A DNA stretch of 64,000 nt from Prochlorococcus sp. MIT 0604 (GTDB lineage: Bacteria; Cyanobacteriota; Cyanobacteriia; PCC-6307; Cyanobiaceae), in the NCBI RefSeq assembly GCF_000757845.1, contig NZ_CP007753.1:1054001-1118000 (forward strand), in the 5' to 3' direction. The notes beneath the pieces were generated by a model. It had not been told where the DNA came from. It worked only from the letters and a program-made list of their open reading frames with translations, and did not search any database. The translations under genes and the position numbers were made by a program. This document shows positions 8,768-30,755 of the stretch, piece by piece (the stretch's first letter is position 1; the number at the start of each line of letters is the position of its first letter).

Positions 8768-8839
8768 GGGTCGCTAGCTCAGCGGTAGAGCATCCGGCTT
8801 TTAACCGGCTGGTCCTGAGTTCGAATCTCAGGCGACCCA
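8768..8839 (+). tRNA. tRNA-Lys (anticodon TTT)
   Basis: A 72-nt cloverleaf: acceptor arms GGGTCG/CGACCC, D-arm GCTCAGCGGTAGAGC, anticodon loop CTTTTAA giving TTT, and T-arm with GTTCGAATC. CCA is not encoded. All four arms pair cleanly. Confidence 0.97.
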
Positions 8840-9357
8840 CATTTTCTTAAATTGAGTTCAACATTTATCTCCTTCATAAAATTTTATTCTAAAAAATATT
8901 TGAAAAAATCATCATTTTTCATAACGCTATTCATCAAAATTATGTCTTTCAAGATTGTTAAAGTTAAAATTTTATCGAACATAATCTAAGACTATATTTT
9001 AGACGTAAAACAATAATTGAAGACTTTGAATTGAAATTAATAGCCCATACTCTGCAAGATTGATCTGTCATTATTATTTAGTAAATCTCAAAGTCAATGA
9101 TTCTTATAAACTTTCAAAGTTTTGAGAGAAAGCAGGAAATCGTTTTTAATATCAAAGCGTTGTTAAATGAGAAAGGAAATATTCAAACATCTTTAATCCA
9201 AAAATTATAAATAATGAAATCCCAAATAATATACATAAATTAAACATATCTTTCGCTAATATTTTTAATAAAAAACTTGTAAAAAAATTATCAAAAATTA
9301 CTTTACAAACCTTCATATATCCTGTTACAATAGTTTACATAAATACATTATTTTATT
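8840..9357 (+). other. AT-rich intergenic region, no gene seen
   Basis: About 520 nt between tRNA-Lys and the small hli gene. Reading frames on both strands break within 20 codons or lack a plausible start. No clear terminator or tRNA-like fold is visible. An hli promoter and possibly a small RNA could lie here, but nothing specific can be shown. Confidence 0.4.
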
Positions 9358-10001: not shown

Positions 10002-11096
10002 CTAGAAGCTGAAAGATGTTTTCAACATTAAACCAGTTTCATCAGTACCAGATTTTTCCTTGATGAACACTATTGGAGTAATTGTCATTCCATCATTCAT
10101 TGGATAGCTATAGAAAGCTTCATACATATAGTACTCAGTAGCACCGTCAGCAATGTGGCCATATGTACCTAAAGCAGCACCAAGTGTACCTGCTCCAACT
10201 TCATCCCACTGAAGTCCAACAAACCACTGAGAAGAATCAGTAGCGCCATCTACGCTTGCTGCTTCATAACCAGCACTTATTGATGGAATTGAACCTGCAC
10301 TATCAGGAGTGTAGTAAGCGTTGAAGGCAGTGTAACTAGTGTCATTAGCTGATTCATAATCTGAATAAGTTAGTGAAACACCGTAAGAATCGCCAGTATA
10401 AGTCACCTGGCCACCGAAGACATCCATACCTTCTTTAGTGAACAGACCCTTTGTACCAGCTCCTTCACCTTCATAACCTATTGCCGCTGTGAAACCATTT
10501 CCGAAATCATAACTAGCACCTGCAGCTGTACCTTTACCTGCAGCAAAAGCAGCACCTGAGTTACCGCAATCATCTAGCTGAATAGTAGGTCCACCATAAA
10601 CGCAAGCAGTGTTATAAAGTGTGCTTCCATCCATGCTGTCTCCAACGAAGACAGTTGTCTTGTCACCTAATGGGAATGTGTATGAAACACCATCAACCTT
10701 TAGAGTAGCTCCAGCATCATTTAGATCTAACTCATCTAAGTTTCCAGCATCAGCATTACCAGCGTCGATAGAAACATCTAGTGAATCTTCACCAGTAAAA
10801 CTTGTGTTTAAATCGATTTGGAATCCATAACCAGCTGTTACAGCTTCGTTACCAGAAAGACCATCAACTGTACCGATTGCCATGTCAACTGAGAATGATG
10901 CAGTTGTTGTTTCTGAGAATGAACCAGCTTCAAGATTGTTAAATCTTGCTTCTAAGCCATCTACACGGCTGTTTGTGACTGCAATTTCTTCTGCAGCATT
11001 AAAATCGCTAATTGTTACTTCGTTAGCTGTCGCAGACATAGGCGCAAGTAGGCCAAGTGTCGCAGGAGCCACGAGTAAGCTTTTAAAAAGCTTCAT
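10002..11096 (-). CDS. cyanobacterial outer-membrane porin
   Basis: Outer-membrane channel for small solutes. The 364-residue product starts with a signal peptide (MKLFKSLLVAPATLGLLAP, cleaved near SATA-NEV), then a short coiled coil (residues about 25-55, AVTNSRVDGLEARFNNLEAG), then a long beta-barrel part rich in Gly, Asp and Thr with alternating patterns, and ends in Phe (LMLKTSFSF) as beta-barrel proteins do. It lacks a full SLH domain, as in short Prochlorococcus porins. The frame is open 17 codons upstream, but only the start at 11096 gives a proper signal peptide. It is monocistronic with its own terminator, and codon use is richer in G and C, as expected for a highly expressed gene. 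Confidence 0.85.
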   Translation of the reverse strand: MKLFKSLLVAPATLGLLAPMSATANEVTISDFNAAEEIAVTNSRVDGLEARFNNLEAGSFSETTTASFSVDMAIGTVDGLSGNEAVTAGYGFQIDLNTSFTGEDSLDVSIDAGNADAGNLDELDLNDAGATLKVDGVSYTFPLGDKTTVFVGDSMDGSTLYNTACVYGGPTIQLDDCGNSGAAFAAGKGTAAGASYDFGNGFTAAIGYEGEGAGTKGLFTKEGMDVFGGQVTYTGDSYGVSLTYSDYESANDTSYTAFNAYYTPDSAGSIPSISAGYEAASVDGATDSSQWFVGLQWDEVGAGTLGAALGTYGHIADGATEYYMYEAFYSYPMNDGMTITPIVFIKEKSGTDETGLMLKTSFSF

Positions 11097-11255
11097 AAAT
11101 TTCCTCACACGAAATTTAAAGGACACCTCAAAATACTGTATATTCACTAACTAAATCAAGTATCTCTGAATACAAATTCAGGATTTTGTACCACTTTTTT
11201 TTTTGGCTATATAGCTAGTTGTTTATTTTAATTAATTTAGGTGGTGGATTATTAA

Positions 11256-11679: not shown

Positions 11680-11784
11680 ATGACTCAACTGAATTTTATT
11701 TTAAACTCTCTTCCAAGAGACCTTCTTGAATTTTCTTTTTTCTGCATAGTTGGCTTTACCGCTGGTTCTATTGGGTTATTATAG
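11680..11784 (+). CDS. 34-residue hydrophobic peptide
   Basis: Short ORF starting MTQLNFILNSLPRDLLEFSF and ending FTAGSIGLL, mostly one predicted membrane helix. A purine-rich GAGGAGCA lies about 10 nt before the ATG and could serve as ribosome binding site. Many picocyanobacterial islands contain such one-helix peptides. Function unknown and coding status uncertain. Confidence 0.4.
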   Translation: MTQLNFILNSLPRDLLEFSFFCIVGFTAGSIGLL

Positions 11785-11969
11785 TTTTACTATTAGAAAT
11801 ACTGAACCTCATAAATATATTGTTTCCAGGTTAATTCTCTCGAACTATAAATTGCTCAGATTTTTTCCTAATCAAGAAATTTCTTACATAATTCCTGCTT
11901 GTAAATCTACCTAATTGTTTAAAAACTTTTGAAGTATGGGATAATAAATTAGATATTCTTCGAAATTAA

Positions 11970-13217
11970 TTGAAATTTAAAAAAGAAAAAATTTTTTATT
12001 ACTTTTTAGGGATAACTTCTTTTTTTATTATTCCTAACTCAGCCAATTCAAATCCGAGTAGCTATTTTGAGCAAAGACAACAATGTATTGAAAACCCTGA
12101 CTTCATTACTCCAATAACAAAAAAATTTAAATATTGCATTAGGGACAACGGAATAATAAAAAAATATGATGAATTTGATAATTTAGTTGAAATTGACCTA
12201 AAGCTTGATGTTTTGGTCGAAGAGAAAATCAAAAAAGATATGAAAAAAGGAATGAAGAATAAAAAGGTATGGAATCGTTTTAGAGAATTAACCGAGTACA
12301 AAGTAGATAATGAAGAACTTTTTAAATATTCATGTGAAGCGAAGAAGGAGAGAGGAAAGGCAATTTGCAAAAACAAAGCCCAGAAAAAGTTAGTTGGGAT
12401 TAGACCATACGGATTTTATTTAAAAAAAGGCTTAAAAGAAATTGAAAATAAAAAATGGGATAAATCTATTAAACTTTTTGATAAAGAAATTGAATATAAT
12501 AATAATCAAGAAGCTTTTGCATACAGGGGGTATTCAAAATTCAAATTAGAAGATTATTTAGGTTCTATTAAGGATTTAGGGGATGCTTTAAAAATTAATA
12601 AGTCTGATATATATTCTCTAAGTTTGAGAAGTAGGGCAAATTTTGCACTTGAAAACTATGATGAAGTTATTTTAGATTTAAATAAACTTATTACTTTAAT
12701 AGAATTCAAATCCGAGAAAGAAACTAATGAACTATTTAATAAAGAAATTAATCCGGTAGACCGTAACTATTACTATCTAAGAGGATTATCTAAAAGTGAA
12801 TTAGGGAAAACAAAAGGTGCTATAAAAGATTTTGATTTAGAAATAATTAATAATCCACTAAATGGAAATGCATATTTTCAAAAAGGCTTAGAAACATATT
12901 GGGTTGATAGAGAGAAGTCTTGCGAAAATTTGATAAAAGGTGTTTCATTAGGAGCGAAAGACTCAAGTTCAGATTTTTTAAAAGAGGCTCAAGAGTCAAA
13001 TACATTTTTGGATGAACTTTTCACTAGTAGTGATAAGTCTTTGATTAACGCATGCAAAAGCGCAAGCACAAGAAAAGCAGAAAATATTAAGCAAAACTAT
13101 GAATCAGAAAAGTTAAATATAGATATTAAGAACTTAATTCAAAAATATTATTTTTTAGTTCCTATCCCTTTATTAGTTATTGGCTACACCTTACTTAAGT
13201 ACAGATCAAGAGATTAA
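11970..13217 (+). CDS. secreted, membrane-anchored TPR protein
   Basis: Product of 415 residues. N-terminal signal or anchor segment (FYYFLGITSFFIIPNSANS), a basic charged region (about 80-150), then tetratricopeptide repeats from about 155 (DKSIKLFDKEIEYNNNQEAFAYRG, split over two helices, then YLGSIKDLGDALKINKSD and AIKDFDLEIINNPLNGNAYF). The C-terminus holds a second membrane helix (YYFLVPIPLLVIGYTLL) followed by KYRSRD. TPRs usually mediate protein contacts. The start is a TTG at 11970; no ATG fits the signal peptide. First of three plus-strand genes with short gaps. Confidence 0.65.
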   Translation: MKFKKEKIFYYFLGITSFFIIPNSANSNPSSYFEQRQQCIENPDFITPITKKFKYCIRDNGIIKKYDEFDNLVEIDLKLDVLVEEKIKKDMKKGMKNKKVWNRFRELTEYKVDNEELFKYSCEAKKERGKAICKNKAQKKLVGIRPYGFYLKKGLKEIENKKWDKSIKLFDKEIEYNNNQEAFAYRGYSKFKLEDYLGSIKDLGDALKINKSDIYSLSLRSRANFALENYDEVILDLNKLITLIEFKSEKETNELFNKEINPVDRNYYYLRGLSKSELGKTKGAIKDFDLEIINNPLNGNAYFQKGLETYWVDREKSCENLIKGVSLGAKDSSSDFLKEAQESNTFLDELFTSSDKSLINACKSASTRKAENIKQNYESEKLNIDIKNLIQKYYFLVPIPLLVIGYTLLKYRSRD

Positions 13218-13294
13218 TAAATTAATTCTTATGCTGAACCACACCACTAATGGTATATTCTAGATAATTATTTTAAATCAAATCTAATTAGAAA

Positions 13295-14260
13295 TTGGCT
13301 ATTCCAACAATAGAAAGCAAAAATACAGACAACTATTTGATTTGGAAACACCCAAATAGGAATTTAAGTATCGGCTCCCAAATAATAGTTAATGAAAGCG
13401 AGGAAGCTTTATTATTTGAAAATGGTCAATTATTGCATGTACTTAAAGCAGGCAAGCATAAAATTGATTCTGGTAATATTCCTGGACTGGATGGAATAAT
13501 AAGGAGATCTGTAGGGAATACTCCAGTAATAAAGATTGACACATGGTTTGTTAATAAGATTGTTTCTACTGACTATAAATGGGGCATTCAATTACAAGTT
13601 AAAGATAATACTCATCAGCTTTTAGTTCCTGTTGGTTCTTATGGATCAATATTACTTAAAATTCAAGATCCTGCTTCATTTGTCCTGCAAGTAGTTGGAA
13701 AAAATGAAAGATTGAAAAAAGAGGAATTGAAAAACTTTATTTTGCCATGCATCGAAAGGGGGTTAAAAGAATATATTGCTGAAAAAATAAAAGAAGGTAG
13801 TCTTGATATTTTTAGCATAGAGACAATTTTAGGAAAGGCATCTAACAATGTTAAAAATTCATTAAAGGCTGTTTTTGAGAAATATGGTTTAACAGTAGTA
13901 GAGTTTTTTGTTCAAGGCATTCAAGTTCAGGGAGAAAGTCCCGAATATAAAAAAATCAAAGAAAGTTTGGCTGATGCTGCCAGTCTAAAAATAAGAGCAA
14001 AAGCTGCTTCTGAAGCTAAAAGTTTTTACAAAGATAAAAAAGAAGTGGAAGATCTAAATAAATCAGTAGAGGGGGTGCAAAATCAAACAAAAGTCTCAAA
14101 AGATAGTGATATTAAAACCAATAAAAATCAATCAAAAAATTATCAAGGAGGAGAAAACCTCAAAGATAAACTAGAGTACTTAAGAGAGCTTCTAGATTCT
14201 GGTTTAATTACAAAAGCCGAATATGACAAAAAACGATTTAAATTATTAGACCAAATTTGA
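13295..14260 (+). CDS. SPFH/virion-core-like protein with C-terminal SHOCT motif
   Basis: The 321-residue product begins with a beta-rich part (residues 1-130: GSQIIVNESEEALLFENGQ, then VLKAGKHKID), as seen in SPFH-domain proteins of the YdjI/virion-core type. A helical stretch with FEKYGLTVVEFFVQGIQVQG and alanine-rich KIRAKAASEAKSF follows, then a polar linker, then a SHOCT-type ending (LEYLRELLDSGLITKAEYDKK). SPFH proteins organise membrane microdomains; SHOCT is a short oligomerisation motif. TTG at 13295 is the likely start. It lies 77 nt after the TPR gene. Confidence 0.68.
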   Translation: MAIPTIESKNTDNYLIWKHPNRNLSIGSQIIVNESEEALLFENGQLLHVLKAGKHKIDSGNIPGLDGIIRRSVGNTPVIKIDTWFVNKIVSTDYKWGIQLQVKDNTHQLLVPVGSYGSILLKIQDPASFVLQVVGKNERLKKEELKNFILPCIERGLKEYIAEKIKEGSLDIFSIETILGKASNNVKNSLKAVFEKYGLTVVEFFVQGIQVQGESPEYKKIKESLADAASLKIRAKAASEAKSFYKDKKEVEDLNKSVEGVQNQTKVSKDSDIKTNKNQSKNYQGGENLKDKLEYLRELLDSGLITKAEYDKKRFKLLDQI

Positions 14261-14284
14261 GTATGAAATTATCTTTTTAATCTC

Positions 14285-14965
14285 ATGAAAACTATCCAAT
14301 CTATACCCTTTGTATGGCTACCATTATTGAGTCTATGGACCATAATTTTTGTTCTATACAGAAATTTATCTGTAGATAATATTGAATTTTATATTCCTTT
14401 ATTAATCTATATACCCGTTTCATTTATTTTTTCTGCCCAGTACGGCCTCTTATTAAAGGATAAAAAAGAATTTTTATTTACAAAGCTAAGTAGCTCTACT
14501 TCTATCATCATATGTTTTTTGATTTCTACAATCTCAATATTTTATTTTATTTACGGCAAATTAGACCTTCAAAGATCCCTATTTTTTATAGTCTTTCCAC
14601 TAGTGGGAAATTTAATAATTAACGAGTTTATTTCCTTATCAAACAAAAAATTAGTTACGAATAAAAAGCAATGGGAAAAAAGAAATATTGAGATAGAAGA
14701 TGAACAAATAAAGAGATCGAAAGAAAATGCAACCTCGAGGGAAATATATTTGTCTTATAAAGGAGAATGGAAGACTTTTTTAAAAAAAGAGTTAAAAAAT
14801 ACTGACGAAAAGGATGAAAAATATATTTTGGAAATAAAAAGAATAATGGATATCGTTGAATACAGTTCTTACTTTAGAAATAGTGATTCTATTGAAGACT
14901 TAGAGGAAATTAAAAAATCAAAAGATTTAAATTTTATAAAAAAGATTTTTAAACAAATTAAGTAA
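14285..14965 (+). CDS. hypothetical membrane protein with charged cytoplasmic tail
   Basis: The 226-residue product has four predicted membrane helices in the first half (residues about 8-125) and a highly charged, helical C-terminal half (KKQWEKRNIEIEDEQIKRSK and onward). Not recognised. It starts 24 nt after the SPFH/SHOCT gene, so the two likely form an operon, and the product may assemble with that protein in the membrane. This functional link is an inference from spacing only. Confidence 0.55.
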   Translation: MKTIQSIPFVWLPLLSLWTIIFVLYRNLSVDNIEFYIPLLIYIPVSFIFSAQYGLLLKDKKEFLFTKLSSSTSIIICFLISTISIFYFIYGKLDLQRSLFFIVFPLVGNLIINEFISLSNKKLVTNKKQWEKRNIEIEDEQIKRSKENATSREIYLSYKGEWKTFLKKELKNTDEKDEKYILEIKRIMDIVEYSSYFRNSDSIEDLEEIKKSKDLNFIKKIFKQIK

Positions 14966-14988
14966 CTCTTTAAAACCTATTTAAATAG

Positions 14989-15600
14989 TTATTTATCTGT
15001 GTCTCCTACACAGAAAATTTTGTAATATGCATCCTTATGTGTGCCTTCTGATCTTCCAAAGTGAAACCCTGATCTAAGAGCCAGCATTCGATTTTCTCCT
15101 GAACCATGATGATCTTCGTGATCATATTCGTAATCGCCATATTTTTCATAAACGTTTGCCAACATTTCATTAGCATCTTCAATGGTAAAAGGGTATTTAG
15201 GATTAGTCGCCAACATAATACCTGCATAACAATCGGCTTGAAGTTCAACTTTAGTAATATTTTTTCTGCTCCTATCGGCTAAACTATCGACAGAATGTTG
15301 TATGTGATGAGCGTATTCATGTGCAGCTGTAAAAGCCAAAGATAAACCTTTATCTTTGTTATTTAAACAAATAAAATTTCTTGTTGGATAATAGGAGGGA
15401 GGTTCATCGCACCACTCCCATCTTACTTTTTTTGCTCCTACTCGTTTGCCAAATGTTTTAGATGCTTCTTGAATGATAATTTCAACAAGATTCTCAGAAT
15501 CATTAATATCAACAATCTCAGAGTAAGAAGGATTTCCAAGAAAAAAAGGTAATGAAAGGAAAGGTAATATTTTTTTTGCAATTGATAAATACATCACCAT
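14989..15600 (-). CDS. zinc-dependent neutral metallopeptidase-like protein
   Basis: The 203-residue product has a signal peptide (IAKKILPFLSLPFFLGNPSYS) and then the zinc protease motif HEYAHH at about residue 91, followed by ELQADCYAGIML, the third-ligand Glu motif found in YpfJ-type putative neutral zinc metallopeptidases. The C-terminal EDHHGSGENRMLALRSGFHFG is also typical of that family. It is probably exported. The ATG overlaps the stop of the upstream zinc-ribbon TPR gene (TAATG), so translation is coupled. Substrate unknown. Confidence 0.72.
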   Translation of the reverse strand: MVMYLSIAKKILPFLSLPFFLGNPSYSEIVDINDSENLVEIIIQEASKTFGKRVGAKKVRWEWCDEPPSYYPTRNFICLNNKDKGLSLAFTAAHEYAHHIQHSVDSLADRSRKNITKVELQADCYAGIMLATNPKYPFTIEDANEMLANVYEKYGDYEYDHEDHHGSGENRMLALRSGFHFGRSEGTHKDAYYKIFCVGDTDK

Positions 15601-16658
15601 TAATTGCAGGACTTCAGCATTGTTGCGTTGTAATCTGAAGCTTTCATTCTCCTTGCTTCTCTTACGTATCTACAACCAACTGGAAGTTTACCACTTTTGA
15701 TTGTAAAAATGCCTCTCCACCAAACAATATTTCCATTTTCTGGTTCAATCCTCTGAGCTACATCTAATAGTTTAAAAGCTTCAAACGGGTAAAGCATTCT
15801 TGAATATACAGTAGCTAAATCTAATAAATTTTGAACATTATTAGGTTCCAATCTGTTTAACATTTGCAAATCAGCCGCAGCTCCAGGTAAATCTCTAATT
15901 TCAGTCTTAGCTCTTAGCCACCCCCTAAAGTAATAATAATCAGAATCGTTTGGATTAATTGAAATTGCCCTAGAGTAATCAGCTAAAGCTCCATTAAAAT
16001 CTCCCATTAGTTTCTTTTCATAACCCCGAGAAAAGTAAAAATTCGACTTGTCTAATGATTTTATTTGTTTAACAGAATTTCTTCTAGAGATAAAGTTTAC
16101 TGTTTTAATACTTGGCCTGAAACCAATAGTCCCAGCAATTTTCATTCTAAAGGGCAAAGAATTTACTTCACTTCTCTTGACCGTTATTAATCCCTTTGAT
16201 GATGTATTGTCTTTCTTTGGTGCAATGGTAACTGATCTCTTAGGAACAACTGAGATTGGTTTTTGGATTTCCCGAATATCAATTTTCTCTCTTTTTGAAA
16301 TTTCTTGATTCAATAATTGAGGGATTATTTTAATAGTTTCTTTTATGCTTTCTTTTATAACGTCTTCTTCATAACTAGTTTCTGTTTTTGTAGGTGTGGG
16401 GATATTTTCAACTCTATTTCTCTGAAAAGAGGGATATCTAAAAATCAATAATACAAGTAATATGCTTCCTAAACCTGCTGGAATGATTATTGAAGAATTA
16501 AATCCTTTAGTTTGACTTACACTCTTGATATAGTGAACAGCCCTTGAAAAAATACCACCTGCAAAATATGATGCTCCACAAAATTCACAGTTATAATAAC
16601 CAGATCTTGGGGGATTCATGGGCGCCCCACATCTTAAACAGTTAGTAGTTCTATTCAT
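15600..16658 (-). CDS. zinc-ribbon, membrane-anchored TPR protein
   Basis: The 352-residue product starts with a zinc ribbon (CLRCGAPMNPP and YNCEFCGASYF, residues 8-33), then a membrane helix at about 50-70 (SSIIIPAGLGSILLVLLIF), a low-complexity linker rich in Thr, Lys and Ile, and TPR units from about 205 (FYFSRGYEKKLMGDFNGALA, DYSRAISINPNDSDYYYFRG, then further helices). Domain order suggests a cytoplasmic zinc ribbon with TPRs outside, or the reverse. It shares a 1-nt-offset stop/start overlap with the downstream metallopeptidase gene, suggesting a functional pair. Confidence 0.68.
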   Translation of the reverse strand: MNRTTNCLRCGAPMNPPRSGYYNCEFCGASYFAGGIFSRAVHYIKSVSQTKGFNSSIIIPAGLGSILLVLLIFRYPSFQRNRVENIPTPTKTETSYEEDVIKESIKETIKIIPQLLNQEISKREKIDIREIQKPISVVPKRSVTIAPKKDNTSSKGLITVKRSEVNSLPFRMKIAGTIGFRPSIKTVNFISRRNSVKQIKSLDKSNFYFSRGYEKKLMGDFNGALADYSRAISINPNDSDYYYFRGWLRAKTEIRDLPGAAADLQMLNRLEPNNVQNLLDLATVYSRMLYPFEAFKLLDVAQRIEPENGNIVWWRGIFTIKSGKLPVGCRYVREARRMKASDYNATMLKSCN

Positions 16659-16762
16659 TAGACAATCTTATAGTATTAAATCTTCAGTTATTGATTACAT
16701 TACAAGAGTATTAACCAATGTAGGCAAATTGGGTATTTTATTAGTAAGTCAAAAAATAATTT

Positions 16763-17284
16763 TCAAAAAGTTATAGATGATTCAACAGGAAAATTGAATT
16801 TTAATTTTCCTTCCAATTTCAATAACTCAATAACAACTACAATCCCCACAACTTCTTTATTATTACTTTCAAGAATATTCGAAACACAATTAACAGTTCC
16901 GCCAGTAGCTAATAAATCATCAACAATGGCATAAGAACTATATTTCTGTAGGGCTTTTTTTTGAATTGAAAGTGTATTTTCTCCATACTCTAAACTGTAG
17001 TTTTTTTCTACAAGTTCTCCTGGGAGCTTCCCAGGCTTTCTTGCTACAATCATTGGCTTTGAAGCTTGCAAAGAGATGGCAGAACCAAAAATAAAGCCTC
17101 TAGCATCTATGGAAATTATTGCATCAGCATTTTTTATAATTTGACTGGAAGACATATTTAAAATAAGTTCCTTGAATATTCTTGGTTCCTGAATAATTCC
17201 AAGAACATCTTTGAATTCAATACCTTTTTTTGGATAATCTTTATAAGTATCAATAAATTCTTTAAGACTATTCATTCTCCTCAT
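16763..17284 (-). CDS. apt: adenine phosphoribosyltransferase
   Basis: Apt converts adenine and PRPP to AMP in purine salvage. The product of about 170 residues carries DYPKKGIEFKDVLGII at the N-terminus, IDARGFIFGSAISLQ, MIVARKPGKLPGE and the PRPP-binding motif YAIVDDLLATGGTVNCVSNI. Length fits. The ATG at 17284 gives MRRMNSLKEF; the second ATG at 17275 is equally possible. It stands alone, flanked by a non-coding stretch on the upstream side. Confidence 0.92.
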   Translation of the reverse strand: MRRMNSLKEFIDTYKDYPKKGIEFKDVLGIIQEPRIFKELILNMSSSQIIKNADAIISIDARGFIFGSAISLQASKPMIVARKPGKLPGELVEKNYSLEYGENTLSIQKKALQKYSSYAIVDDLLATGGTVNCVSNILESNNKEVVGIVVVIELLKLEGKLKFNFPVESSITF

Positions 17285-21747: not shown

Positions 21748-21821
21748 CGGGGCGTGGCGCAGCTTGGTAGCGCGGGTGCTTTGGGAGCACTAGGTCGCAG
21801 GTTCGAATCCTGTCGCCCCGA
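21748..21821 (+). tRNA. tRNA-Pro (anticodon TGG), integration target
   Basis: A complete cloverleaf: acceptor CGGGGCG/CGCCCCG, D-arm GCGCAGCTTGGTAGCGC, anticodon loop TTTGGGA with TGG, T-arm GGTTCGAATCC, discriminator A. CCA is not encoded. Its 3' half from the anticodon stem onward is repeated eight more times over the next 32 kb, marking it as the attachment site of mobile elements. The gene itself is intact because the incoming element restores its 3' end. Confidence 0.97.
21776..21821 (+). repeat. att copy 1 (3' half of the intact tRNA-Pro)
   Basis: 46-bp sequence from GTGCTTTGGGAGC to CGCCCCGA. Reference copy of the attachment repeat; it is part of the functional tRNA. Confidence 0.9.
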
Positions 21822-21870
21822 TAGTTATAGCAATAGATCTCAGCAATTCCAAAAAGTGAGTCTCAAAAAT

Positions 21871-21920
21871 CCGTAGAAAATTCCGTAGATATTTATGGAA
21901 ATTAACAAAAACTTCTACGG
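21871..21920 (+). repeat. left arm-site-like repeats of segment A (CCGTAGA)
   Basis: CCGTAGA at 21871-21877 and 21883-21889 (12 bp apart) and inverted TCTACGG at 21914-21920, starting 50 bp inside the left att copy. Matching motifs occur at the right end. This arrangement resembles arm-type binding sites of tyrosine recombinases; binding is inferred. Confidence 0.55.
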
Positions 21921-22049
21921 AAGTTGGAGGATATGTGTGCAATTAAATGTTGAATACAGGCAATATTGGACTATATTATGATCAATCGGATTGCAGCGAG
22001 TGACTTTTCGTTCCCTTATATATAAGGGCGTGATCAACCTTAATCGGCA

Positions 22050-22160
22050 ATGTTTACGAAGAAACCTCCGCCAACCCCCTTCCACTACCGCCACGAAGTA
22101 AGCATGGTTGCCCTTCTTGAAAAGCGGAATTATAGATGGAGCTCTAAGAGTGAGACGTAG
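22050..22160 (+). CDS. possible 36-residue peptide
   Basis: ORF MFTKKPPPTPFHYRHEVSMV continuing to ALLEKRNYRWSSKSET. Base use is richer in G and C than surrounding DNA. It lies between a perfect palindrome CCCTTATATATAAGGG (22013-22028) and the HTH gene. Coding status is uncertain; the same stretch could be a structured leader. Confidence 0.3.
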   Translation: MFTKKPPPTPFHYRHEVSMVALLEKRNYRWSSKSET

Positions 22161-22214
22161 TTTCTGGGGAGGGTCTGCAGATTAAACAAAAAATTAAATG
22201 TTTTTTCTCAGATC

Positions 22215-22490
22215 ATGGCGTTATCAACTTGGCTTCCTTTAGAGGATTTGGCAGAACAACTATATTGTTCAGAACGTACTATTTATAAACTTAAAGCTTC
22301 CAATGTATTTGAAGCCGGAACTTGTTTTTATCGGATAGGTAATGGACAAGAAAAAGGGAAATGTATTTACAACTTAGAAAAATGTAGAGAGGCATTACTC
22401 CTTCATACCAAGGAAGGACAAGAAAAGAAGAAAGGAACTCGATATAGCAAAAAAATGCTTAAAGACCTTGTTTCAAGGGAGGTTAAGTAA
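22215..22490 (+). CDS. HTH DNA-binding protein, excisionase/regulator-like
   Basis: The 91-residue product opens with WLPLEDLAEQLYCSERTIYK, a classical helix-turn-helix of the MerR/excisionase class, followed by FYRIGNGQEKGKCIYNLEKC and a basic C-terminal tail (KKKGTRYSKKMLKDL). Such proteins in integrative elements bend DNA for excision or regulate the adjacent replication gene. Its stop overlaps the ATG of the AAA ATPase gene (TAATG), so the pair is translationally coupled. Whether it is the excisionase or a repressor cannot be told. Confidence 0.65.
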   Translation: MALSTWLPLEDLAEQLYCSERTIYKLKASNVFEAGTCFYRIGNGQEKGKCIYNLEKCREALLLHTKEGQEKKKGTRYSKKMLKDLVSREVK

Positions 22491-23887
22491 TGAGTAACAA
22501 CAAAAAAGATCCAGAAACACAAAAAATAATAGCTAAAGAAAAAACTAAAAAAGTTAGCTCAGACGAATACGCCATTAGTCCTTTTGGCACTTTGTATAAA
22601 ACTTATAAAAGAACAAGTATTCAAAAGCCAGCTAATAAACAAATTAAAGATAAGAAAAGGGAAGCAAAAACAATCACTGAAAGGTTAAATTCATTTGACG
22701 ACGAAGTAGATACCTTTTTTAAAGGTAATTGTGAAATTCAACCAAAGGACAGAATAGTTTACTTAAGGGATAAAGCGAAAAATCTTGGATTAAATCTAAG
22801 AGATAACGAAATCAGAGCAAAGATTTGGGAAGGTCGTAAACGATCTAAAGGACTTGTGACAATGCTTGCTCCAGATATGGAAATAAATGCACCACAAGAG
22901 GTTTGGTTAGTTGAGGATTTAATAATGAAATCCGATACAAACCTTCTTATTGCTTCTCCTAAAGTTGGAAAAACTACTTTAGTTGTTGACTTGATTGGCA
23001 AATGGAGTCGAGGCGTTGAAGATTCCTATTTGGGTAAAAAGTTTATTGGTAAGTGTCCTTCGATTTTTATTGTTGGGACTGACATGCCCAGGTCAAGGTG
23101 GTTACCACTTCTGAATAGATTTGGTCTCGCAGAACAAACAGGCAAAGATAAATGGAAATTATTAAACCCGATAATTGGCTTATTTACACAAAATGAATCA
23201 TTGCATCTTGATGATTCTGGATTATCTCGTATTGGAGAATTAGTCAGCAAAAATGAGGGATGTTTATTGTTGATAGATAGTTACTCAAAAGTTGTTGCAC
23301 CTCTCGGACTTAAAGAATCTGACGCCAGTTTTGCTGGCCCAATTGGAGATCTTCAAGAGGTTGTGGCGCCTTTTGGAGTAACTACAATTGTCATTCACCA
23401 CAGTGGCAAACAAAGTTTAGGATCTGGTGCTGTGATAGCTTCAAGGGGTTCAACTGCTCTTCCGGCTGCAGTATCTCAAGTTATAAATTTAAAATGGTTT
23501 AATAGAGACGAAAATCGTCAGGATAAAAGAATACTTCTTGAAACTGAAGGTAGAGGAATGTCTTTAGAGGCAATAATTTTGCAGACTCAATATGGTTTTG
23601 AATCTGATGGAGATGCAACTGATGTCATTGAAAGGCACAAAGAAAAAGAAAAAATAGCACGATTACAAGACACTCAAGCTGAGGTATTTGAAGAGGTGAA
23701 AGATAGGAGACCTCTAGAAACAACTTCTGGTGACATTAAAAAGGCTTTAAAGATTGGTGATAGGTCTGCTCTCAGGTCATTAAGAGCATTAGAAAGAAAG
23801 GGTTTATTAATAAGCGAAACCAGAAGAACTGATAAAGGTAGATGCGTAGTTTTTAAAATATCACCAACAATTGTCTTAACTGACTAG
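22490..23887 (+). CDS. RepA-like AAA ATPase (replicative helicase type) with C-terminal winged helix
   Basis: The 465-residue product has a charged N-terminus (1-120), then an AAA_25/RepA-type RecA-fold core: Walker A as ASPKVGKTTLV near residue 160, Walker B as CLLLIDSYSKVV near residue 260, then VTTIVIHHSGKQ with sensor-like His-His, and SRGSTALPAAVSQVINL. The C-terminus (about 400-460) has a winged helix (TTSGDIKKALKIGDRSALRS, LRALERKGLLI). Such ATPases act as hexameric helicases for plasmid or satellite-element replication. It is the expected replication protein of the element; the adjacent repeat-rich stretch could be its origin. Confidence 0.75.
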   Translation: MSNNKKDPETQKIIAKEKTKKVSSDEYAISPFGTLYKTYKRTSIQKPANKQIKDKKREAKTITERLNSFDDEVDTFFKGNCEIQPKDRIVYLRDKAKNLGLNLRDNEIRAKIWEGRKRSKGLVTMLAPDMEINAPQEVWLVEDLIMKSDTNLLIASPKVGKTTLVVDLIGKWSRGVEDSYLGKKFIGKCPSIFIVGTDMPRSRWLPLLNRFGLAEQTGKDKWKLLNPIIGLFTQNESLHLDDSGLSRIGELVSKNEGCLLLIDSYSKVVAPLGLKESDASFAGPIGDLQEVVAPFGVTTIVIHHSGKQSLGSGAVIASRGSTALPAAVSQVINLKWFNRDENRQDKRILLETEGRGMSLEAIILQTQYGFESDGDATDVIERHKEKEKIARLQDTQAEVFEEVKDRRPLETTSGDIKKALKIGDRSALRSLRALERKGLLISETRRTDKGRCVVFKISPTIVLTD

Positions 23888-24181
23888 ATGTCTTAGGTGA
23901 CTAAACCGTCTGATCTTTTTAGACATTGGACACTTCAGATACTTAGGATGCATAGACACATTAGGCACCTTTAGTAAAAAACTTTCGAAATTATTTATGA
24001 AAAAAGAAACCGATATTATCTTTTGGGTCCTTTCTAGAGTAAGTGGGTGGGTGATTTCGAGGCGCTCAATATTTCTAGGTAAAAGATTGCATAATTAGAC
24101 ACACTTTTACAAATTCCCGATTATACAAATAGCTAAAATTAAGTTGTAGCAATTTATCTCATCAAATGTAAATAATTAAAG
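23888..24181 (+). other. non-coding stretch with iteron-like repeats after the helicase gene
   Basis: No ORF. From about 23885 to 23975 there are imperfect repeats: TTAGACATTGGACACTT, ATAGACACATTAGGCACC, and on the other strand GTCACCTAAGACATC. The position beside a RepA-like gene suggests a replication origin or an autoregulatory operator. The repeats are imperfect, so this is tentative. Confidence 0.35.
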
Positions 24182-24454
24182 ATGAAACCAAAATCATTGC
24201 ATTTGGAAGCTTATACGATTTCCGAAACAGCTAAAAGACTAGGCTATAAAAGCACTAAAACAATCTATCGACTTCTCAAAAGAGATTTATTAGAAGACTA
24301 TGTTTATCTAGAAAGATCAGGAAGAGTTTATTTAGTATTAGAGCCGCAAAATCTTCCATCTTTAGGGGAAAAAATTAGAACAAATATTCAGTTTAAAAAA
24401 TCTAATGTCATTAAAAAAGGGGCTAAGCCCCTTTTTTTTAATAATTCGGTTTAA
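24182..24454 (+). CDS. HTH protein, excisionase-like
   Basis: The 90-residue product has AYTISETAKRLGYKSTKTIY, an N-terminal helix-turn-helix like HTH_17/excisionase proteins, then RLLKRDLLEDYVYLERSGRV. The basic C-terminus (QFKKSNVIKKGAKPL) is encoded partly by the terminator hairpin. Second DNA-binding protein of the element, after the gene for the helicase; either could be the directionality factor. Confidence 0.6.
   Translation: MKPKSLHLEAYTISETAKRLGYKSTKTIYRLLKRDLLEDYVYLERSGRVYLVLEPQNLPSLGEKIRTNIQFKKSNVIKKGAKPLFFNNSV
24414..24441. terminator. bidirectional terminator between mobility and cargo genes
   Basis: AAAAAGGGGC-TA-AGCCCCTTTTTTTT: an 8-bp-plus GC-rich stem with A-run before and T-run after. 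It overlaps the 3' end of the HTH gene and faces the convergent hypothetical gene, separating the replication module from the nitrate cargo. Confidence 0.85.
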
Positions 24455-24460
24455 TTAAAA

Positions 24461-24766
24461 TTAATTTCCTCCCAGAGGTGACCAAAGAGTTGCTTCTGAT
24501 CCTATAACTGGGGCAACACCATGACTTTTGATTTTAGTAGAAACTTTATTTTTAACAATAGGAGTATCTATTTCTCCTAAAGCTGACCATAAAGTTGATT
24601 GATGAGCGATAACAGCTGGAACTTTTAACGTTTGAGATTGTAAAGAAGGCTTATGGGTTCTTACAAGTTGTACTCCAAGAGAACCAACAACAAATGCCCC
24701 AAGAAAACCTGCAAATATAGCAGTAGTATTGTTACTCCTTACTGAGGTAGATACGTTATTAGACAT
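24461..24766 (-). CDS. hypothetical protein with one N-terminal membrane segment
   Basis: The 101-residue product starts MSNNVSTSVRSNNTTAIFAG, has a hydrophobic segment (FLGAFVVGSLGVQLV) and a C-terminal part with two similar short blocks, HQSTLWSALGEI and SEATLWSPLGGN, an internal duplication. ATG 24766 is preferred; the frame is open to 24790. No family recognised. It lies at the 3' edge of the nitrate cluster, about 90 nt from an NtcA-type site. Confidence 0.5.
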   Translation of the reverse strand: MSNNVSTSVRSNNTTAIFAGFLGAFVVGSLGVQLVRTHKPSLQSQTLKVPAVIAHQSTLWSALGEIDTPIVKNKVSTKIKSHGVAPVIGSEATLWSPLGGN

Positions 24767-24858
24767 AATAGTTATGTGACTAAATTTCATTTTTGACCGA
24801 AGTCCCCGTTCCTTGGCTTCAATCTTAATGCGGCTCGCAAAACGAGATGAACGTTTTT

Positions 24859-24872
24859 GTAGTCTACGCTAC
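24859..24872 (+). promoter_or_regulatory. NtcA-type site (GTA-N8-TAC), 24.86 kb
   Basis: GTAGTCTACGCTAC is a perfect GTA-N8-TAC palindrome flanked by T and A. In the plus direction a TAATTT box follows 21 nt later (24894-24899), the canonical spacing of NtcA-activated promoters. Minus-strand use toward 24766 has no clear -10 box. NtcA is the global nitrogen regulator of cyanobacteria. Confidence 0.5.
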
Positions 24873-24951
24873 ATATTAACTATAAGTACAATTTAATTTA
24901 TAAGTTGTTCATTACTATACAAAAACTTATTAAAAAATAAGAAACTTAATT

Positions 24952-25092
24952 TTAAAGTGAAGAAAATATATTTGAATTTTTTTGAGTAAAAAATGATTGA
25001 TTATTTTCATAATTGTTAGCAGAATAACTTCCGGAAACAACAGTTCCGTGAGTTACCCCAAAAATAAAACCAAGTAAGATCGCTAAACGCAT
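24952..25092 (-). CDS. 46-residue peptide with N-terminal hydrophobic segment
   Basis: ORF starting MRLAILLGFIFGVTHGTVVS then polar, Asn/Ser-rich (SANNYENNQSFFTQKN). It reads like a small exported or membrane-inserted peptide. The RLAILLGF start is slightly Hli-like but lacks the Asn and Glu ligands. It lies 75 nt from moaA's 3' end on the same strand. Coding likely but not proven. Confidence 0.4.
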   Translation of the reverse strand: MRLAILLGFIFGVTHGTVVSGSYSANNYENNQSFFTQKNSNIFSSL

Positions 25093-25167
25093 CCAAGAGT
25101 ATAAATTTGAAACTAATTTCCCTCGAATTTAGAATATATGATGTTGTTATTTATACTAAATAATTTT

Positions 25168-26229
25168 TTATCCCCCAAGATATGACATTGATGGATGAAT
25201 TTTTTGATTTTTGTCAGTTGTTTTTTCTAATTTTTTAAATCTATCTTCACTATAGTTATCTTCTCTCGCTTCCCAAATGCTCTTGATTTTATTTTCCAGT
25301 TCATGGAGATTAATTGGTAGAGATAACCATGGGTTTAGATTTATACCTTCACTAGAAAAAAGACACGTGTAAGCATAACCATCGCTAGTTATCCTCAACC
25401 TATTACAATCTGAACAAAAAGGATTACTTACTGAAGAGATTGTACTTATAAAACTTTTTGAATCACTGATGTACCATCTATTGGCTGTTTGCCCTTCCTT
25501 TCTTCCGTAGTCTTTTAATCGATATTTCTTCTTTAATAAACTAATAATTTTTTCAGAGAAAAAAACATCTGATGGCTTCCAATTATTAGATGTGCCTACG
25601 TCCATATATTCAATAAAGCGAATTTCTATAGACCTTTTTTTTGCAAAATCAACTAATTCAAAAATTTGATTATCATTTATCTCTTTTTTAATGACTGCAT
25701 TTATTTTTAATTTCCCCTCCTTTGGATTAAATCCAGCATTAATTGCATGATCTATTCCTTCAAGGACAGTAAATAATTTTTCTTTACCAATAATTTTATT
25801 TTCCTCTCCAATCATGTTTGAAAAAATATCAGGATCAATTGCGTCTAAACTTACTGTTATACGGTCTAACCCATTTTTAAAAAGCTCAATAGCTTTTTTC
25901 TCAGAGAGCAAATATCCATTTGTAGTTAAAGAAATATCCTGTAAATTTGCTATTGGATTTGATTCTTCTAACCTTTGCAATTTAATTTCATGAAGAAGTT
26001 CATCTAATTGAGAACTTAATAAAGGTTCACCTCCAGTAATTCTTAAAGAATTTACCCCTAATCGACAACTGACCAAAATTAATTTTTTAAATTGTTCAAT
26101 ATTTAATACATCTAAACTATAATTTTCTGGCTTACAGTAAATGCATGAAAAATTGCAATTTTGTTTAAGAGATAACCTTAAAACTTTTAACTTTCTTTTT
26201 CTATTATCCTCCAATTGCTTAAGTCCCAT
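25168..26229 (-). CDS. moaA: GTP 3',8-cyclase MoaA
   Basis: Radical SAM enzyme that starts molybdenum cofactor synthesis by converting GTP to 3',8-cyclo-GTP. The 353-residue product has the SAM-cluster motif C25-x3-C29-x2-C32 (CNFSCIYC), ITGGEPLL, the second cluster motif near residue 270 (PFCSDCNRLRITSDGYAYTC) and the C-terminal Gly-Gly that is required for activity. Its first 11 nt overlap the 3' end of mobA, so the two are translationally coupled. The cofactor serves NarB in this cluster. Confidence 0.95.
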   Translation of the reverse strand: MGLKQLEDNRKRKLKVLRLSLKQNCNFSCIYCKPENYSLDVLNIEQFKKLILVSCRLGVNSLRITGGEPLLSSQLDELLHEIKLQRLEESNPIANLQDISLTTNGYLLSEKKAIELFKNGLDRITVSLDAIDPDIFSNMIGEENKIIGKEKLFTVLEGIDHAINAGFNPKEGKLKINAVIKKEINDNQIFELVDFAKKRSIEIRFIEYMDVGTSNNWKPSDVFFSEKIISLLKKKYRLKDYGRKEGQTANRWYISDSKSFISTISSVSNPFCSDCNRLRITSDGYAYTCLFSSEGINLNPWLSLPINLHELENKIKSIWEAREDNYSEDRFKKLEKTTDKNQKIHPSMSYLGG

Positions 26230-26824
26230 TATTCATATTTAAAAATTCTCTCTTCGAATTTATATTAATTAAATCTCCATTGTTTGCATAGAAATATTTA
26301 TGGGGAATTTGATCAACCCATCCAAGAAAGTTTTTCTTTCCAGAGGATAACTTTTTTTTTAATTTAAAATGATTTTCTTCATTGAGGGGATAAATACCGA
26401 ATAATGGTTGTACAAAAATTCCATCATGGGATACTACCGCAGAATTTTGATTTTTTTCCCATGATTTAATAAGTGAATAAATTAATTTTGTATTCAAATT
26501 AGGCATATCGATTGGGATAATCAGGATATTTTTAGTGTTTTTTTTAAAAGATGAAAAAATTTGTTCTATACAAGTTAAAGGGCCATCAAAGGGTTTGGCA
26601 TCTGAAATAAACCCAACATTATTTCTTTTATCAACTTCTTTTGAATGAGAAGTATGATTTGTTATTACAAAAGTTTCCAAATTAAGAGTATTTAATATTT
26701 TTATTTTATGAGTAAGCCAATTTCCGCCTTCATGATGTTTAATTAGTGCTTTATCAAACCCCATTCTTGAACTCTTGCCACCAGCCAAGATGAATGCCTT
26801 AAATTTTTTATGTTTTATTTCCAT
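26219..26824 (-). CDS. mobA: molybdenum cofactor guanylyltransferase MobA
   Basis: MobA attaches GMP to molybdopterin to form the guanine dinucleotide cofactor used by NarB. The 201-residue product has the nucleotide-binding signature AFILAGGKSSRMGFDKALIK near the N-terminus, then FISDAKPFDGPLTCIE and IIPIDMPNLN, all typical. The C-terminal third is degenerate compared with E. coli MobA but of normal length. First gene of mobA-moaA; an NtcA-type site lies 34 nt upstream of the ATG. Confidence 0.9.
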   Translation of the reverse strand: MEIKHKKFKAFILAGGKSSRMGFDKALIKHHEGGNWLTHKIKILNTLNLETFVITNHTSHSKEVDKRNNVGFISDAKPFDGPLTCIEQIFSSFKKNTKNILIIPIDMPNLNTKLIYSLIKSWEKNQNSAVVSHDGIFVQPLFGIYPLNEENHFKLKKKLSSGKKNFLGWVDQIPHKYFYANNGDLININSKREFLNMNNGT

Positions 26825-26857
26825 AACTTAGGTAATATTTTCCCACGAGTATTTTAT

Positions 26858-26871
26858 GTATCGAATAATAC
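26858..26871 (-). promoter_or_regulatory. NtcA-type site upstream of mobA-moaA
   Basis: Plus-strand GTATCGAATAATAC, a perfect GTA-N8-TAC. Reading the minus strand toward mobA, an AT-rich AATATT/TATTAC box follows at about 20 nt. It lies 34-47 nt before the mobA start. Activation by NtcA is inferred from motif, spacing and gene function. Confidence 0.65.
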
Positions 26872-26974
26872 CAATAATAAGATTGCTAATTATTCCCAAT
26901 TTTGAATTTTTCTTAGTACTGACAATATAATTTTAGCCTTTTAAAAAATTTGAATTTATTTCCCCTCAAATTTC

Positions 26975-26988
26975 GTATTAAATAATAC
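26975..26988 (+). promoter_or_regulatory. NtcA-type site upstream of napA/nrtP-narB
   Basis: GTATTAAATAATAC, a perfect GTA-N8-TAC, followed 21 nt later by TATAAAT (27010-27016) as -10 box and then, about 30 nt on, the transporter ATG at 27046. This is the standard class II NtcA-activated promoter layout and the best of the four sites. Confidence 0.75.
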
Positions 26989-27045
26989 AAATGAATGCAT
27001 TGATCGAAATATAAATTGCTTAAAAATTAATCTTTAAAAATTTTC

Positions 27046-28599
27046 ATGTTAAGTGATGTTTGGTCTTTGAATGGCAGATATAGAACTCTTCACCTCACCT
27101 GGTTTGCCTTTTTCCTTACTTTTGTTGTTTGGTTTAACCTCGCACCTCTTGCAACTACTGTTAAAGCCGATTTAGGTTTATCTGTCGCTCAAATTAGGAC
27201 AGTAGCAATATGTAATGTTGCTTTAACTATTCCTGGCAGAGTTTTGATTGGAATGTTATTGGATAAATTTGGTCCAAGAAAAACTTACTCAACAATCTTG
27301 ATATTTTCTGTAGTCCCATGTTTATTATTTGCTAGTGCGCAAGACTTCAATCAACTTGTAATTGCGAGATTGCTTTTATCAATAGTAGGAGCAGGTTTTG
27401 TTATCGGAATAAGAATGGTATCTGAATGGTTCCCTCCCAAAGAAATTGGATTAGCTGAGGGAATATATGGAGGATGGGGAAATTTTGGATCTGCTTTTTC
27501 TGCGCTTTCTCTTGTTGCCGTAGCTGGATTCTTGTCTTTTTCAGGAGGTTTTGAGTTTCCAACTGGAGCCGTACTGAATTGGAGAGGAGCTATTGTTCTT
27601 ACAGGAATTATTTCTTTTGTTTATGGAATTATTTATTTCTTTAGTGTGACTGACACACCTCCAGGAAAACCCTACCAAAGGCCTGCAAAAACAGCTGGTT
27701 TAGAAGTAACGAGTATAAGAGATTTCTGGGGTTTAATTGGAATGAATGTTCCATTCGCAGCAATTCTTTCAGTACTATGTTGGAGACTTCAGAAGGTAGG
27801 TTTTCTAACTTCTTCTACTTATCCAATAGCTTTGCTTGCAGTATTGGCTTGGTTTGTTTTTCAGACTTGGGGAATTGTAAGGACAAATATTGAATTGTTG
27901 AAAGGAACTAAAATTTACCCTAAAGAAGATAGATATGAATTCAAACAAGTAGCTATTTTGGAATTAACTTACATAGTAAATTTTGGTTCTGAATTGGCAG
28001 TAGTTTCTATGCTTCCTAGTTTCTTTGAATTTACTTTTGATTTACCTAAAGCTGTAGCTGGAATTTTGGCATCATGTTATGCATTTGTGAATTTAATAGC
28101 TAGACCTGCAGGAGGATTAATATCTGACAGAACAGGTAATAGAAAAAATACAATGGGATTCCTGACAATGGGATTAGGTTTTGGATATCTATTGATGTCT
28201 TTAATAAAACCTGGAACTTTTACAGGATCAGCAGGAATTCTTATGGCTGTATTTTTAACTATGCTCTGTTCATTTTTCGTTCAATCAGGAGAAGGTTCAA
28301 CTTTTGCTTTAGTTCCCTTAGTTAAAAAAAGAGTAACAGGACAAATAGCTGGATTGGTTGGGGCTTATGGAAATGTTGGTGCGGTAACTTATCTAAATAT
28401 TTATAGCCTTTTACCTTTATGGATGGGTGGAGGTAAAGATCCTTCTCCAGAAATAATTGCGGCTTCAAATAGTGCCTTCTTCCAAGTCTTAGGTATAGCA
28501 GGATTAATAGTTGGATTCTTCTGTTATTTCTTTTTAAAGGAACCTCAAGGATCATTCGCGGATGCTTATGAAGGCGAAAAAGCTGAAAATTACGTTTAA
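27046..28599 (+). CDS. napA: nitrate permease of the major facilitator family
   Basis: NapA/NrtP imports nitrate (and nitrite) across the cytoplasmic membrane in marine picocyanobacteria in place of the ABC NrtABCD system. The 517-residue product has twelve predicted helices. Typical NNP-family segments include TFVVWFNLAPLATTVKADLG, GFVIGIRMVSEWFPPKEIGL with AEGIYGGWGNFGSA, and the second nitrate signature GLVGAYGNVGAVTYLNIYSL. It precedes narB by 35 nt and shares its promoter. The symbol nrtP is also used for this gene. Confidence 0.93.
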   Translation: MLSDVWSLNGRYRTLHLTWFAFFLTFVVWFNLAPLATTVKADLGLSVAQIRTVAICNVALTIPGRVLIGMLLDKFGPRKTYSTILIFSVVPCLLFASAQDFNQLVIARLLLSIVGAGFVIGIRMVSEWFPPKEIGLAEGIYGGWGNFGSAFSALSLVAVAGFLSFSGGFEFPTGAVLNWRGAIVLTGIISFVYGIIYFFSVTDTPPGKPYQRPAKTAGLEVTSIRDFWGLIGMNVPFAAILSVLCWRLQKVGFLTSSTYPIALLAVLAWFVFQTWGIVRTNIELLKGTKIYPKEDRYEFKQVAILELTYIVNFGSELAVVSMLPSFFEFTFDLPKAVAGILASCYAFVNLIARPAGGLISDRTGNRKNTMGFLTMGLGFGYLLMSLIKPGTFTGSAGILMAVFLTMLCSFFVQSGEGSTFALVPLVKKRVTGQIAGLVGAYGNVGAVTYLNIYSLLPLWMGGGKDPSPEIIAASNSAFFQVLGIAGLIVGFFCYFFLKEPQGSFADAYEGEKAENYV

Positions 28600-30746: not shown

Positions 30747-30755
30747 GCAAGAATC

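What the first reader, a model, noticed from the sequence alone, without database searches (positions are those of the whole stretch)
11970..16658. Membrane-associated SPFH/SHOCT, TPR and metallopeptidase cluster in a backbone region
Five genes in two facing groups combine two TPR proteins with membrane anchors, an SPFH/SHOCT protein, a helical membrane protein and an exported zinc protease. SPFH, SHOCT and zinc-ribbon modules are common in membrane stress and defence systems. The combination is unfamiliar to me and may be a stress or phage-response system.
Basis: inference. Interest (0 to 1): 0.5.

Follow-up and report, generated by a model that had tools for sequence, protein, structure and literature searches.

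The report
Island-borne SPFH membrane module, swappable parts
A five-gene block in a marine cyanobacterium (Prochlorococcus) comes and goes as one unit and looks like a membrane-bound scaffold that carries interchangeable enzyme or binding parts outside the inner membrane; what it does for the cell is untested.

Summary
The five genes are real and form one unit: TPR1 > SPFH/SHOCT > 4-TM protein, convergent with an exported YpfJ-like metallopeptidase and a zinc-ribbon-TM-TPR protein. It is not backbone: at this site the unit is missing in 13 of 13 same-genus genomes that could be read across (one has a copy elsewhere); homology stops at 11,741-11,792 and resumes at 16,757-16,779 in 9 of 10 aligned. 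Among 400 family genomes SPFH orthologues occur in 15, the TM gene in those 15 plus one (contig ends before SPFH), and the peptidase in 12 (one a remnant), all within these 16. Linked in 16 of 18 loci is a family with a shared N-terminal zinc ribbon, usually one TM helix, and exchangeable tails (TPR, M48 peptidase, trypsin-like, solute-binding). Recombinase-like genes lie within 20 kb in 5 of 18 loci. It works like the B. subtilis YdjI SPFH module but is not a PSP system: no PspA was found in this genome. Best reading: an SPFH-organised inner-membrane platform for swappable periplasmic effectors. Phage defence, envelope stress and vesicle export remain unresolved.

The parts
11793..16757 (.). 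unit present here and missing at this site in same-genus relatives (approximate borders of the indel)
   Evidence: blastn of both flanks to 10 empty sites: left homology ends 11741-11792; right resumes 16757-16779 in 9 of 10 and 16881 in one
11970..13217 (+). TPR1: signal peptide, beta domain (54-144), TPR domain (about 149-341), C-terminal TM helix
   Evidence: TTG start fits the orthologues (A4); signal peptide read by eye
13295..14260 (+). SPFH (Band_7_1, PF13421) protein with C-terminal SHOCT-like helices and no TM helix; presumed cytoplasmic scaffold
   Evidence: TTG start fits the conserved MAIxTIES start
14285..14965 (+). TM: 4 TM helices, then a long helix and a small helical bundle; no known family
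   Evidence: pLDDT 86; no PDB match at E <= 0.001
14989..15600 (-). MP: exported metallopeptidase, YpfJ-like, HEYAHH and ELQADC motifs
   Evidence: H94 E95 H98 H99 and E119-C124 invariant in 9 rows; signal peptide read by eye
15600..16658 (-). TPR2: N-terminal zinc ribbon (C7 C10 C24 C27), TM helix 55-73, TPR tail; local member of the zinc-ribbon family
10002..11147 (-). porin, left flank, shared with empty sites
16763..17284 (-). apt (adenine phosphoribosyltransferase), right flank, shared with 11 of 13 empty sites
8768..8840 (+). tRNA-Lys(ttt), left border of the variable interval
21748..21821 (+). tRNA-Pro(tgg), right border of the interval; a nitrate-assimilation island follows on its 3' side

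Best explanation
Shown: the five genes are one presence/absence unit at this site, and TPR1, SPFH, TM and the exported metallopeptidase co-occur. Near them in most loci are proteins with a shared zinc-ribbon head, usually one TM helix, and an exchangeable tail. Inferred mechanism: the SPFH/SHOCT protein assembles a scaffold on the inner face of the inner membrane, held there by the 4-TM protein and perhaps by the anchor of TPR1. The zinc-ribbon heads dock onto this cytoplasmic scaffold, which gathers their periplasmic tails (here TPR; elsewhere an M48 peptidase, a solute-binding domain and others) into one patch, next to the TPR domain of TPR1 and the secreted metallopeptidase. In effect it is a modular periplasmic display platform whose parts are swapped behind the zinc-ribbon/TM head and which is often carried on islands. 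The likeliest use is protection of the envelope, or control of what crosses it, under attack or stress; proteases, binding domains and, in some loci, a linked secreted nuclease would fit action on incoming phage proteins and DNA, but this last step is a guess.
For: Unit: absent from this site in 13 of 13, borders in 10. Co-occurrence; p 6e-20 for peptidase within the TM set. Gene order. Zinc-ribbon genes in the fetched locus in 16 of 18; genome-wide at E <= 1e-8 in 8 of 9 SPFH/TM-positive against 3 of 192 other genomes (Fisher p 2.6e-11), and two of those three are frames of 44 and 32 aa. Alike heads, swapped tails: window TPR2 and L004:2517-4211 share 72% over 90 N-terminal residues, then TPR against M48 with no tail match; L002 against L004 78% and none. 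Tails of 34 proteins form 18 groups at E <= 1e-4. N-in topology by charge in 26 of 31 with a clear TM. An SPFH protein without a TM that needs membrane partners is what was shown for YdjI with YdjG/YdjH (PMC8581546, abstract and passages). Secreted SNase beside zinc-ribbon genes in 4 of 18 loci and at a second site of this genome.
Against: No interaction, expression or phenotype data. Docking of the ribbon to SPFH is inferred from linkage and from YdjG. The four invariant cysteines are partly by construction, since members were picked by a Cys pattern. Some head-alike pairs keep alike tails (window and L002, 78% in both), so exchange is not universal. G058 shows no zinc-ribbon protein; G345 neither, but its contig ends there and its peptidase is a remnant with stops. 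The peptidase is missing in 4 of 18 (G058, G060, G224, G346; two of these genomes are under 80% complete). This genome has a zinc-ribbon gene away from the cluster. SHOCT is below its cut-off. The SPFH tree largely follows host groups, which argues against fast-moving cargo.
Confidence: 0.45

Rival explanations
1. Envelope-stress module: a YdjI-like SPFH complex that stabilises the inner membrane or clears damaged periplasmic proteins, kept only in some lineages; tails vary with habitat and there is no role in phage conflict.
For: Closest functional analogue is the stress-induced YdjI complex (PMC8581546). The SPFH tree largely follows host lineage, and the window copy and G336 are sisters at the same site with identities like the flanking genes, the peptidase excepted.
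Against: Patchy (15 of 400) and missing at this site in 13 of 13 same-genus genomes read; island context in several loci; no PspA found in this genome; diverse tails (18 groups among 34).
Confidence: 0.3
2. Island-mobility or vesicle device: the module serves the mobile elements that carry it, by bending or budding the envelope or by helping particles in or out.
For: Recombinase-like genes within 20 kb in 5 of 18 loci (D21, M03, G026, G052, G210), DnaB-like ATPases in 6 of 18. SPFH proteins and ESCRT-III-type remodelling are linked in bacteria and archaea (PMC10936438, passages). That tycheposon DNA is found in vesicles is recalled, not seen in a call.
Against: The window unit has no recombinase of its own; the nearest, about 20 kb away, belongs to another element beyond tRNA-Pro. 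In G003 and G058 they are far from the unit. No SPFH relative in IMG/VR or phage records.
Confidence: 0.12
3. Nutrient-scavenging surface module: exported peptidases, nuclease and solute-binding tails digest and capture polymers.
For: Tails include solute-binding and peptidase domains; secreted SNase in some loci; C-type lectin domain in two TPR1 orthologues; a porin lies next door.
Against: No transport domain was found in the five proteins; most tails are TPR or match no known family.
Confidence: 0.13

Closest known systems
Bacillus subtilis PspA-YdjG-YdjH-YdjI module (SPFH family PF13421)
   Same: PF13421 also rings in B. subtilis (control; that this hit is YdjI is from the papers and recall). 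SPFH protein without a TM helix; linked membrane partners, one with zinc ribbons and a TM (PMC8581546; PMC11237479).
   Different: No PspA in the cluster, and none found in the genome; SHOCT-like end in place of a C-terminal zinc finger; no TPM-type hit in the membrane partner; TPR1, an exported peptidase and zinc-ribbon proteins with exchangeable tails are added.
SPFH-SHOCT proteins in general
   Same: Band_7_1 (PF13421) is the domain most often found with SHOCT (PMC3581485, passage), so this protein's own architecture is common.
   Different: No described operon with TPR1, this TM protein and zinc-ribbon plugs was seen in the papers listed.
YpfJ-type neutral zinc metallopeptidases (NF050010, PF04228)
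   Same: HExxHH and ELQADC-type motifs; best NCBIfam hit, E 1.3e-09.
   Different: Short exported form; 38 bits against a cut-off of 250, so not an equivalog.
Tycheposons (tRNA-linked cargo elements of Prochlorococcus)
   Same: Some relatives lie near tRNAs with recombinase-like and DnaB-like genes; tycheposons as described in PMC10872708 (passages).
   Different: The window unit has no recombinase and lies between two protein genes, not at a tRNA end.

Membership tests
PSP / PspA-YdjGHI stress system | SPFH protein of PF13421 lacking a TM helix | tested here: met
   84.3 bits against 24; no TM segment
PSP / PspA-YdjGHI stress system | PspA/IM30 partner | tested here: not met
   not among the five proteins; no PF04012 hit in the genome at E <= 0.001; present but far from the unit in the other 4 positive genomes tested
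PSP / PspA-YdjGHI stress system | C-terminal zinc finger in the SPFH protein | tested here: not met
   alignment A1: SHOCT-like helices, no Cys pairs at the C-terminus
PSP / PspA-YdjGHI stress system | zinc-ribbon plus TM partner (YdjG-like) | tested here: inconclusive
   TPR2 has one ribbon and one TM; YdjG has two ribbons and a YpeB-like domain (PMC11237479, passage)
PSP / PspA-YdjGHI stress system | TPM-domain membrane partner (YdjH-like) | tested here: not met
   no TPM hit for the TM protein up to E 1
YpfJ neutral zinc metallopeptidase | score over the equivalog cut-off | tested here: not met
   38 of 250 bits
YpfJ neutral zinc metallopeptidase | HExxH and downstream ELQAD-type motif | tested here: met
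   invariant in 9 of 9 aligned orthologues
Tycheposon | own tyrosine recombinase and insertion at a tRNA 3' end | tested here: not met
   indel lies between porin and apt with no recombinase inside; met in part for some relatives
Known anti-phage defence system | match to a catalogued defence family over most of a protein | tested here: not met
   PADLOC on the five proteins: only partial hits, best E 1.1e-4
SPFH-organised complex | oligomeric SPFH assembly at the membrane | not testable with these tools
   needs biochemistry or microscopy

The most novel reading that the evidence does not exclude
A system not described in the papers seen here: in picocyanobacteria a conserved SPFH/SHOCT-4TM-TPR core acts as a socket for a family of zinc-ribbon 'plugs' whose periplasmic effector tails are swapped by recombination, much as polymorphic effector systems swap their active ends, giving island-borne, quickly changing periplasmic immunity (or vesicle loading).
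Probability: 0.25. Interest if true: 0.8.

Novelty: new variant of a known kind. Interest (0 to 1): 0.52.

Why it matters
If right, one of the most streamlined free-living cells keeps a multi-gene, exchangeable membrane platform. That would give a testable role for SPFH proteins that work without an ESCRT-III partner, and would name a non-metabolic cargo class of Prochlorococcus islands. The alike-head, swapped-tail family is a concrete handle for finding further effectors.

Tried and rejected
Backbone gene cluster: rejected (empty sites). PSP system: rejected as membership. CapP/RmrA-like defence peptidase, from weak PADLOC hits: rejected, because the protein reads as exported and has YpfJ-type motifs. 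Location inside the neighbouring nitrate island: rejected, because the unit lies on the other side of tRNA-Pro. PDB sequence search with the SPFH profile: nothing up to E 1. TM model against PDB: nothing at E <= 0.001. Promoter and terminator scan: no more than shuffles give. Attachment repeats: one 36-nt direct repeat brackets the M03 island but occurs in no other fetched locus. IMG/VR scan with the peptidase alignment: three distant HExxH relatives, 28-33% identity. Paper searches: in the listings I saw (15 of 101, 5 of 6 and 3 of 3 papers) no title or abstract describes this combination; only open-licence PMC papers are held. Phylum-wide search with the TM profile: 1 of 244, this genome.

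A first count of tail groups (19) was wrong in method: four proteins without a called TM were left out of the comparison and counted as singletons. It was redone for 34 of 35 proteins: 18 groups at E <= 1e-4, 20 at 1e-10.

Rows dropped before counts: the SPFH paralogues G010 and G179 (218-235 bits) and 13 genomes with weak Band-7 hits (53-70 bits); the 31 genomes with peptidase hits of 53 bits or less; the 6 genomes with zinc-ribbon hits weaker than E 1e-8. One search found trmFO in 80 of 121 genus genomes; I took stretches from 20 of them, chosen for long contigs; seven were under 2.1 kb and could not be read across, leaving 13; 10 of the 13 were aligned. That searches drew the same 400 genomes, and the same 201, is taken from the handles, not stated by the tool.

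Full report
What is there. The window is part of a 1.78 Mb single-contig genome (G000). Two identical copies of an integrase-like gene, one beside a nitrate-assimilation cluster in the window, fit strain MIT0604, which a paper names as the only documented HLII genome with duplicate nitrate clusters in separate islands (PMC6370341, passages); that identification is an inference. The five ORFs stand as described. The first three are 77 and 24 bases apart; the last two overlap by one base and converge on the first group.

Anatomy. TPR1 has a signal peptide (by eye), a beta domain (54-144), a TPR domain and a C-terminal TM helix (mean pLDDT 77). The SPFH protein matches PF13421 well above its cut-off and has no TM helix. 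The TM protein folds as four TM helices followed by a long helix and a small bundle (pLDDT 86), with no PDB match at E <= 0.001. The peptidase has a signal peptide (by eye) and HEY(A/S)HH and ELQADC motifs conserved over nine orthologues. TPR2 has a zinc ribbon, a TM helix and a TPR tail. Two diverged TPR1 orthologues (G060, G058) carry an inserted C-type lectin domain (25.7 and 39.9 bits against 22.6).

A unit, not backbone. In 13 of 13 same-genus stretches that hold both tRNA-Lys(ttt) and tRNA-Pro(tgg), the unit is missing at this site, while porin is present in 13 and apt in 11. One of the 13, G396, has the unit elsewhere (contig 9). In the ten stretches aligned, homology to the window ends at 11,741-11,792 and resumes at 16,757-16,779 (16,881 in one); in between they have 98-257 bases in nine and about 1.25 kb in one. 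A gain or loss of about 5 kb holding exactly these genes is the simplest reading. G336 has the unit at the same site, with identities like those of the flanks (SPFH 83%, TPR1 75%, TM 82%, TPR2 75%; trmFO 83%, porin 79%, apt 78%), but its peptidase is only 55% identical, while that of G396, at another site, is 73%; so parts of the unit may have different histories. The window and G336 SPFH are sisters (97/95). In G003, G052, G058 and G345 the unit lies about 5-26 kb from prfC (release factor 3 confirmed by Pfam for G345; positions), and in G210 between the same tRNA-Lys and tRNA-Pro pair, so some neighbourhoods recur.

The genes travel together. Among 400 family genomes, SPFH orthologues occur in 15. 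The TM gene occurs in 16: the same 15 plus G073, whose contig ends 78 bases upstream of that gene, so SPFH could not be seen. The peptidase occurs in 11 plus one remnant (G345), all within those 16. With two further single-cell genomes (D21, M03) there are 18 loci. TPR1 lies directly upstream of SPFH in 14 of the 16 where this can be read; the peptidase is intact in 13 of 18; a zinc-ribbon protein is in the fetched locus in 16 of 18.

Alike heads, swapped tails. Thirty-seven heads share four cysteines; members were first picked by a Cys pattern, so that invariance is partly by construction. The wider head (Gly and Ala after the second Cys, Gly after the fourth, in 90% or more) and the TM are less so. 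Of 35 full proteins, 10 match TPR families and single ones match M48 peptidase, trypsin-like peptidase, solute-binding, DUF4234 and DUF3721 families (the member with the trypsin-like domain was not identified). Tails of 34 of them form 18 groups at E <= 1e-4, the largest being 11 TPR-type tails. Window TPR2 and the L004 protein are 72% identical over 90 head residues and then unrelated, TPR against M48; L026 has two genes 74% alike in the head and 22% in the tail. Other pairs stay alike throughout (window and L002, 78% in both parts), so exchange is not universal. In 201 genomes the heads are found at E <= 1e-8 in 8 of 9 SPFH/TM-positive and 3 of 192 other genomes; of the three, two are short frames (44 and 32 aa) and the third is at a contig end of a 53%-complete genome.

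Island context. Recombinase-like genes lie within 20 kb of the core in D21, M03, G026, G052 and G210 (5 of 18), and DnaB-like ATPases in 6 of 18 (Pfam confirms three of them). The recombinases are called from mutual similarity and conserved R, H and Y positions; Pfam's Phage_integrase model stays just under its cut-off for the window and G003 copies (25.4 and 26.1 of 27.1 bits) and is not hit by three others. The profile was built partly from these loci, so the count is not independent. In G003 a small element elsewhere has a recombinase, a zinc-ribbon gene, small exported proteins and an HTH-like gene. The window unit has no recombinase of its own; the one at 36,725-37,999 belongs to the nitrate island beyond tRNA-Pro.

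Mechanism and its limits. The nearest studied system is YdjI of B. subtilis, an SPFH protein without an anchor that needs the membrane proteins YdjG and YdjH to reach the membrane (PMC8581546, abstract and passages); YdjG carries two zinc ribbons and a TM (PMC11237479, passage). By analogy the zinc-ribbon heads here should sit on the cytoplasmic side with the SPFH scaffold while the tails project into the periplasm; charge bias agrees in 26 of 31. PspA, the partner in B. subtilis, was not found in this genome, so the known output is not available. SHOCT has been proposed as a membrane-anchoring or binding element and did not act as an oligomerisation domain in one test (PMC11237479 and PMC3581485, passages). 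That the platform serves defence is a guess from its patchiness, diversity and hydrolytic tails; no call shows it.

Verdict. A real, co-occurring module with no name in the papers seen; a new variant of the YdjI-type SPFH arrangement with exchangeable zinc-ribbon-anchored parts; function unproven.

Noticed in passing
window 21748-37999: Nitrate-assimilation island directly 3' of tRNA-Pro(tgg): MFS transporter, molybdopterin oxidoreductase (narB-like), moeA, and a recombinase-like gene present twice, identical, in the genome.
   Followed up: partly
whole genome G000: No PspA/Vipp1 (PF04012) hit at E <= 0.001, although the four other SPFH-positive picocyanobacteria tested each have one.
   Followed up: no
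L145 8914-10574 (G000:C1:1449914-1451574): A second zinc-ribbon gene next to a secreted SNase gene (Pfam 62 bits), away from the cluster, in the same genome.
   Followed up: partly
L146 7675-13517 (G003): Mini-element: recombinase-like gene, zinc-ribbon gene, several small exported proteins with repeated signal peptides, HTH-like gene.
   Followed up: partly
L030 10008-11642 and L031 9855-11555: TPR1 orthologues with an inserted C-type lectin domain (Lectin_C 25.7 and 39.9 bits, cut-off 22.6).
   Followed up: yes
L032 6085-8983 and L033 6930-9801: Diverged SPFH paralogues (about 30% identity) in a different set with two proteins read as membrane proteins and a short zinc-ribbon protein.
   Followed up: no
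L006 196-231 and 17284-17319: 36-nt direct repeat, 92% alike, bracketing the recombinase-like gene and cargo of the M03 island; possible attachment repeat, in no other fetched locus.
   Followed up: partly
window 24797-24856, 62076-62138, 49074-49171, 52458-52552: Two glutamine-II riboswitches and two Yfr13 sRNAs.
   Followed up: no
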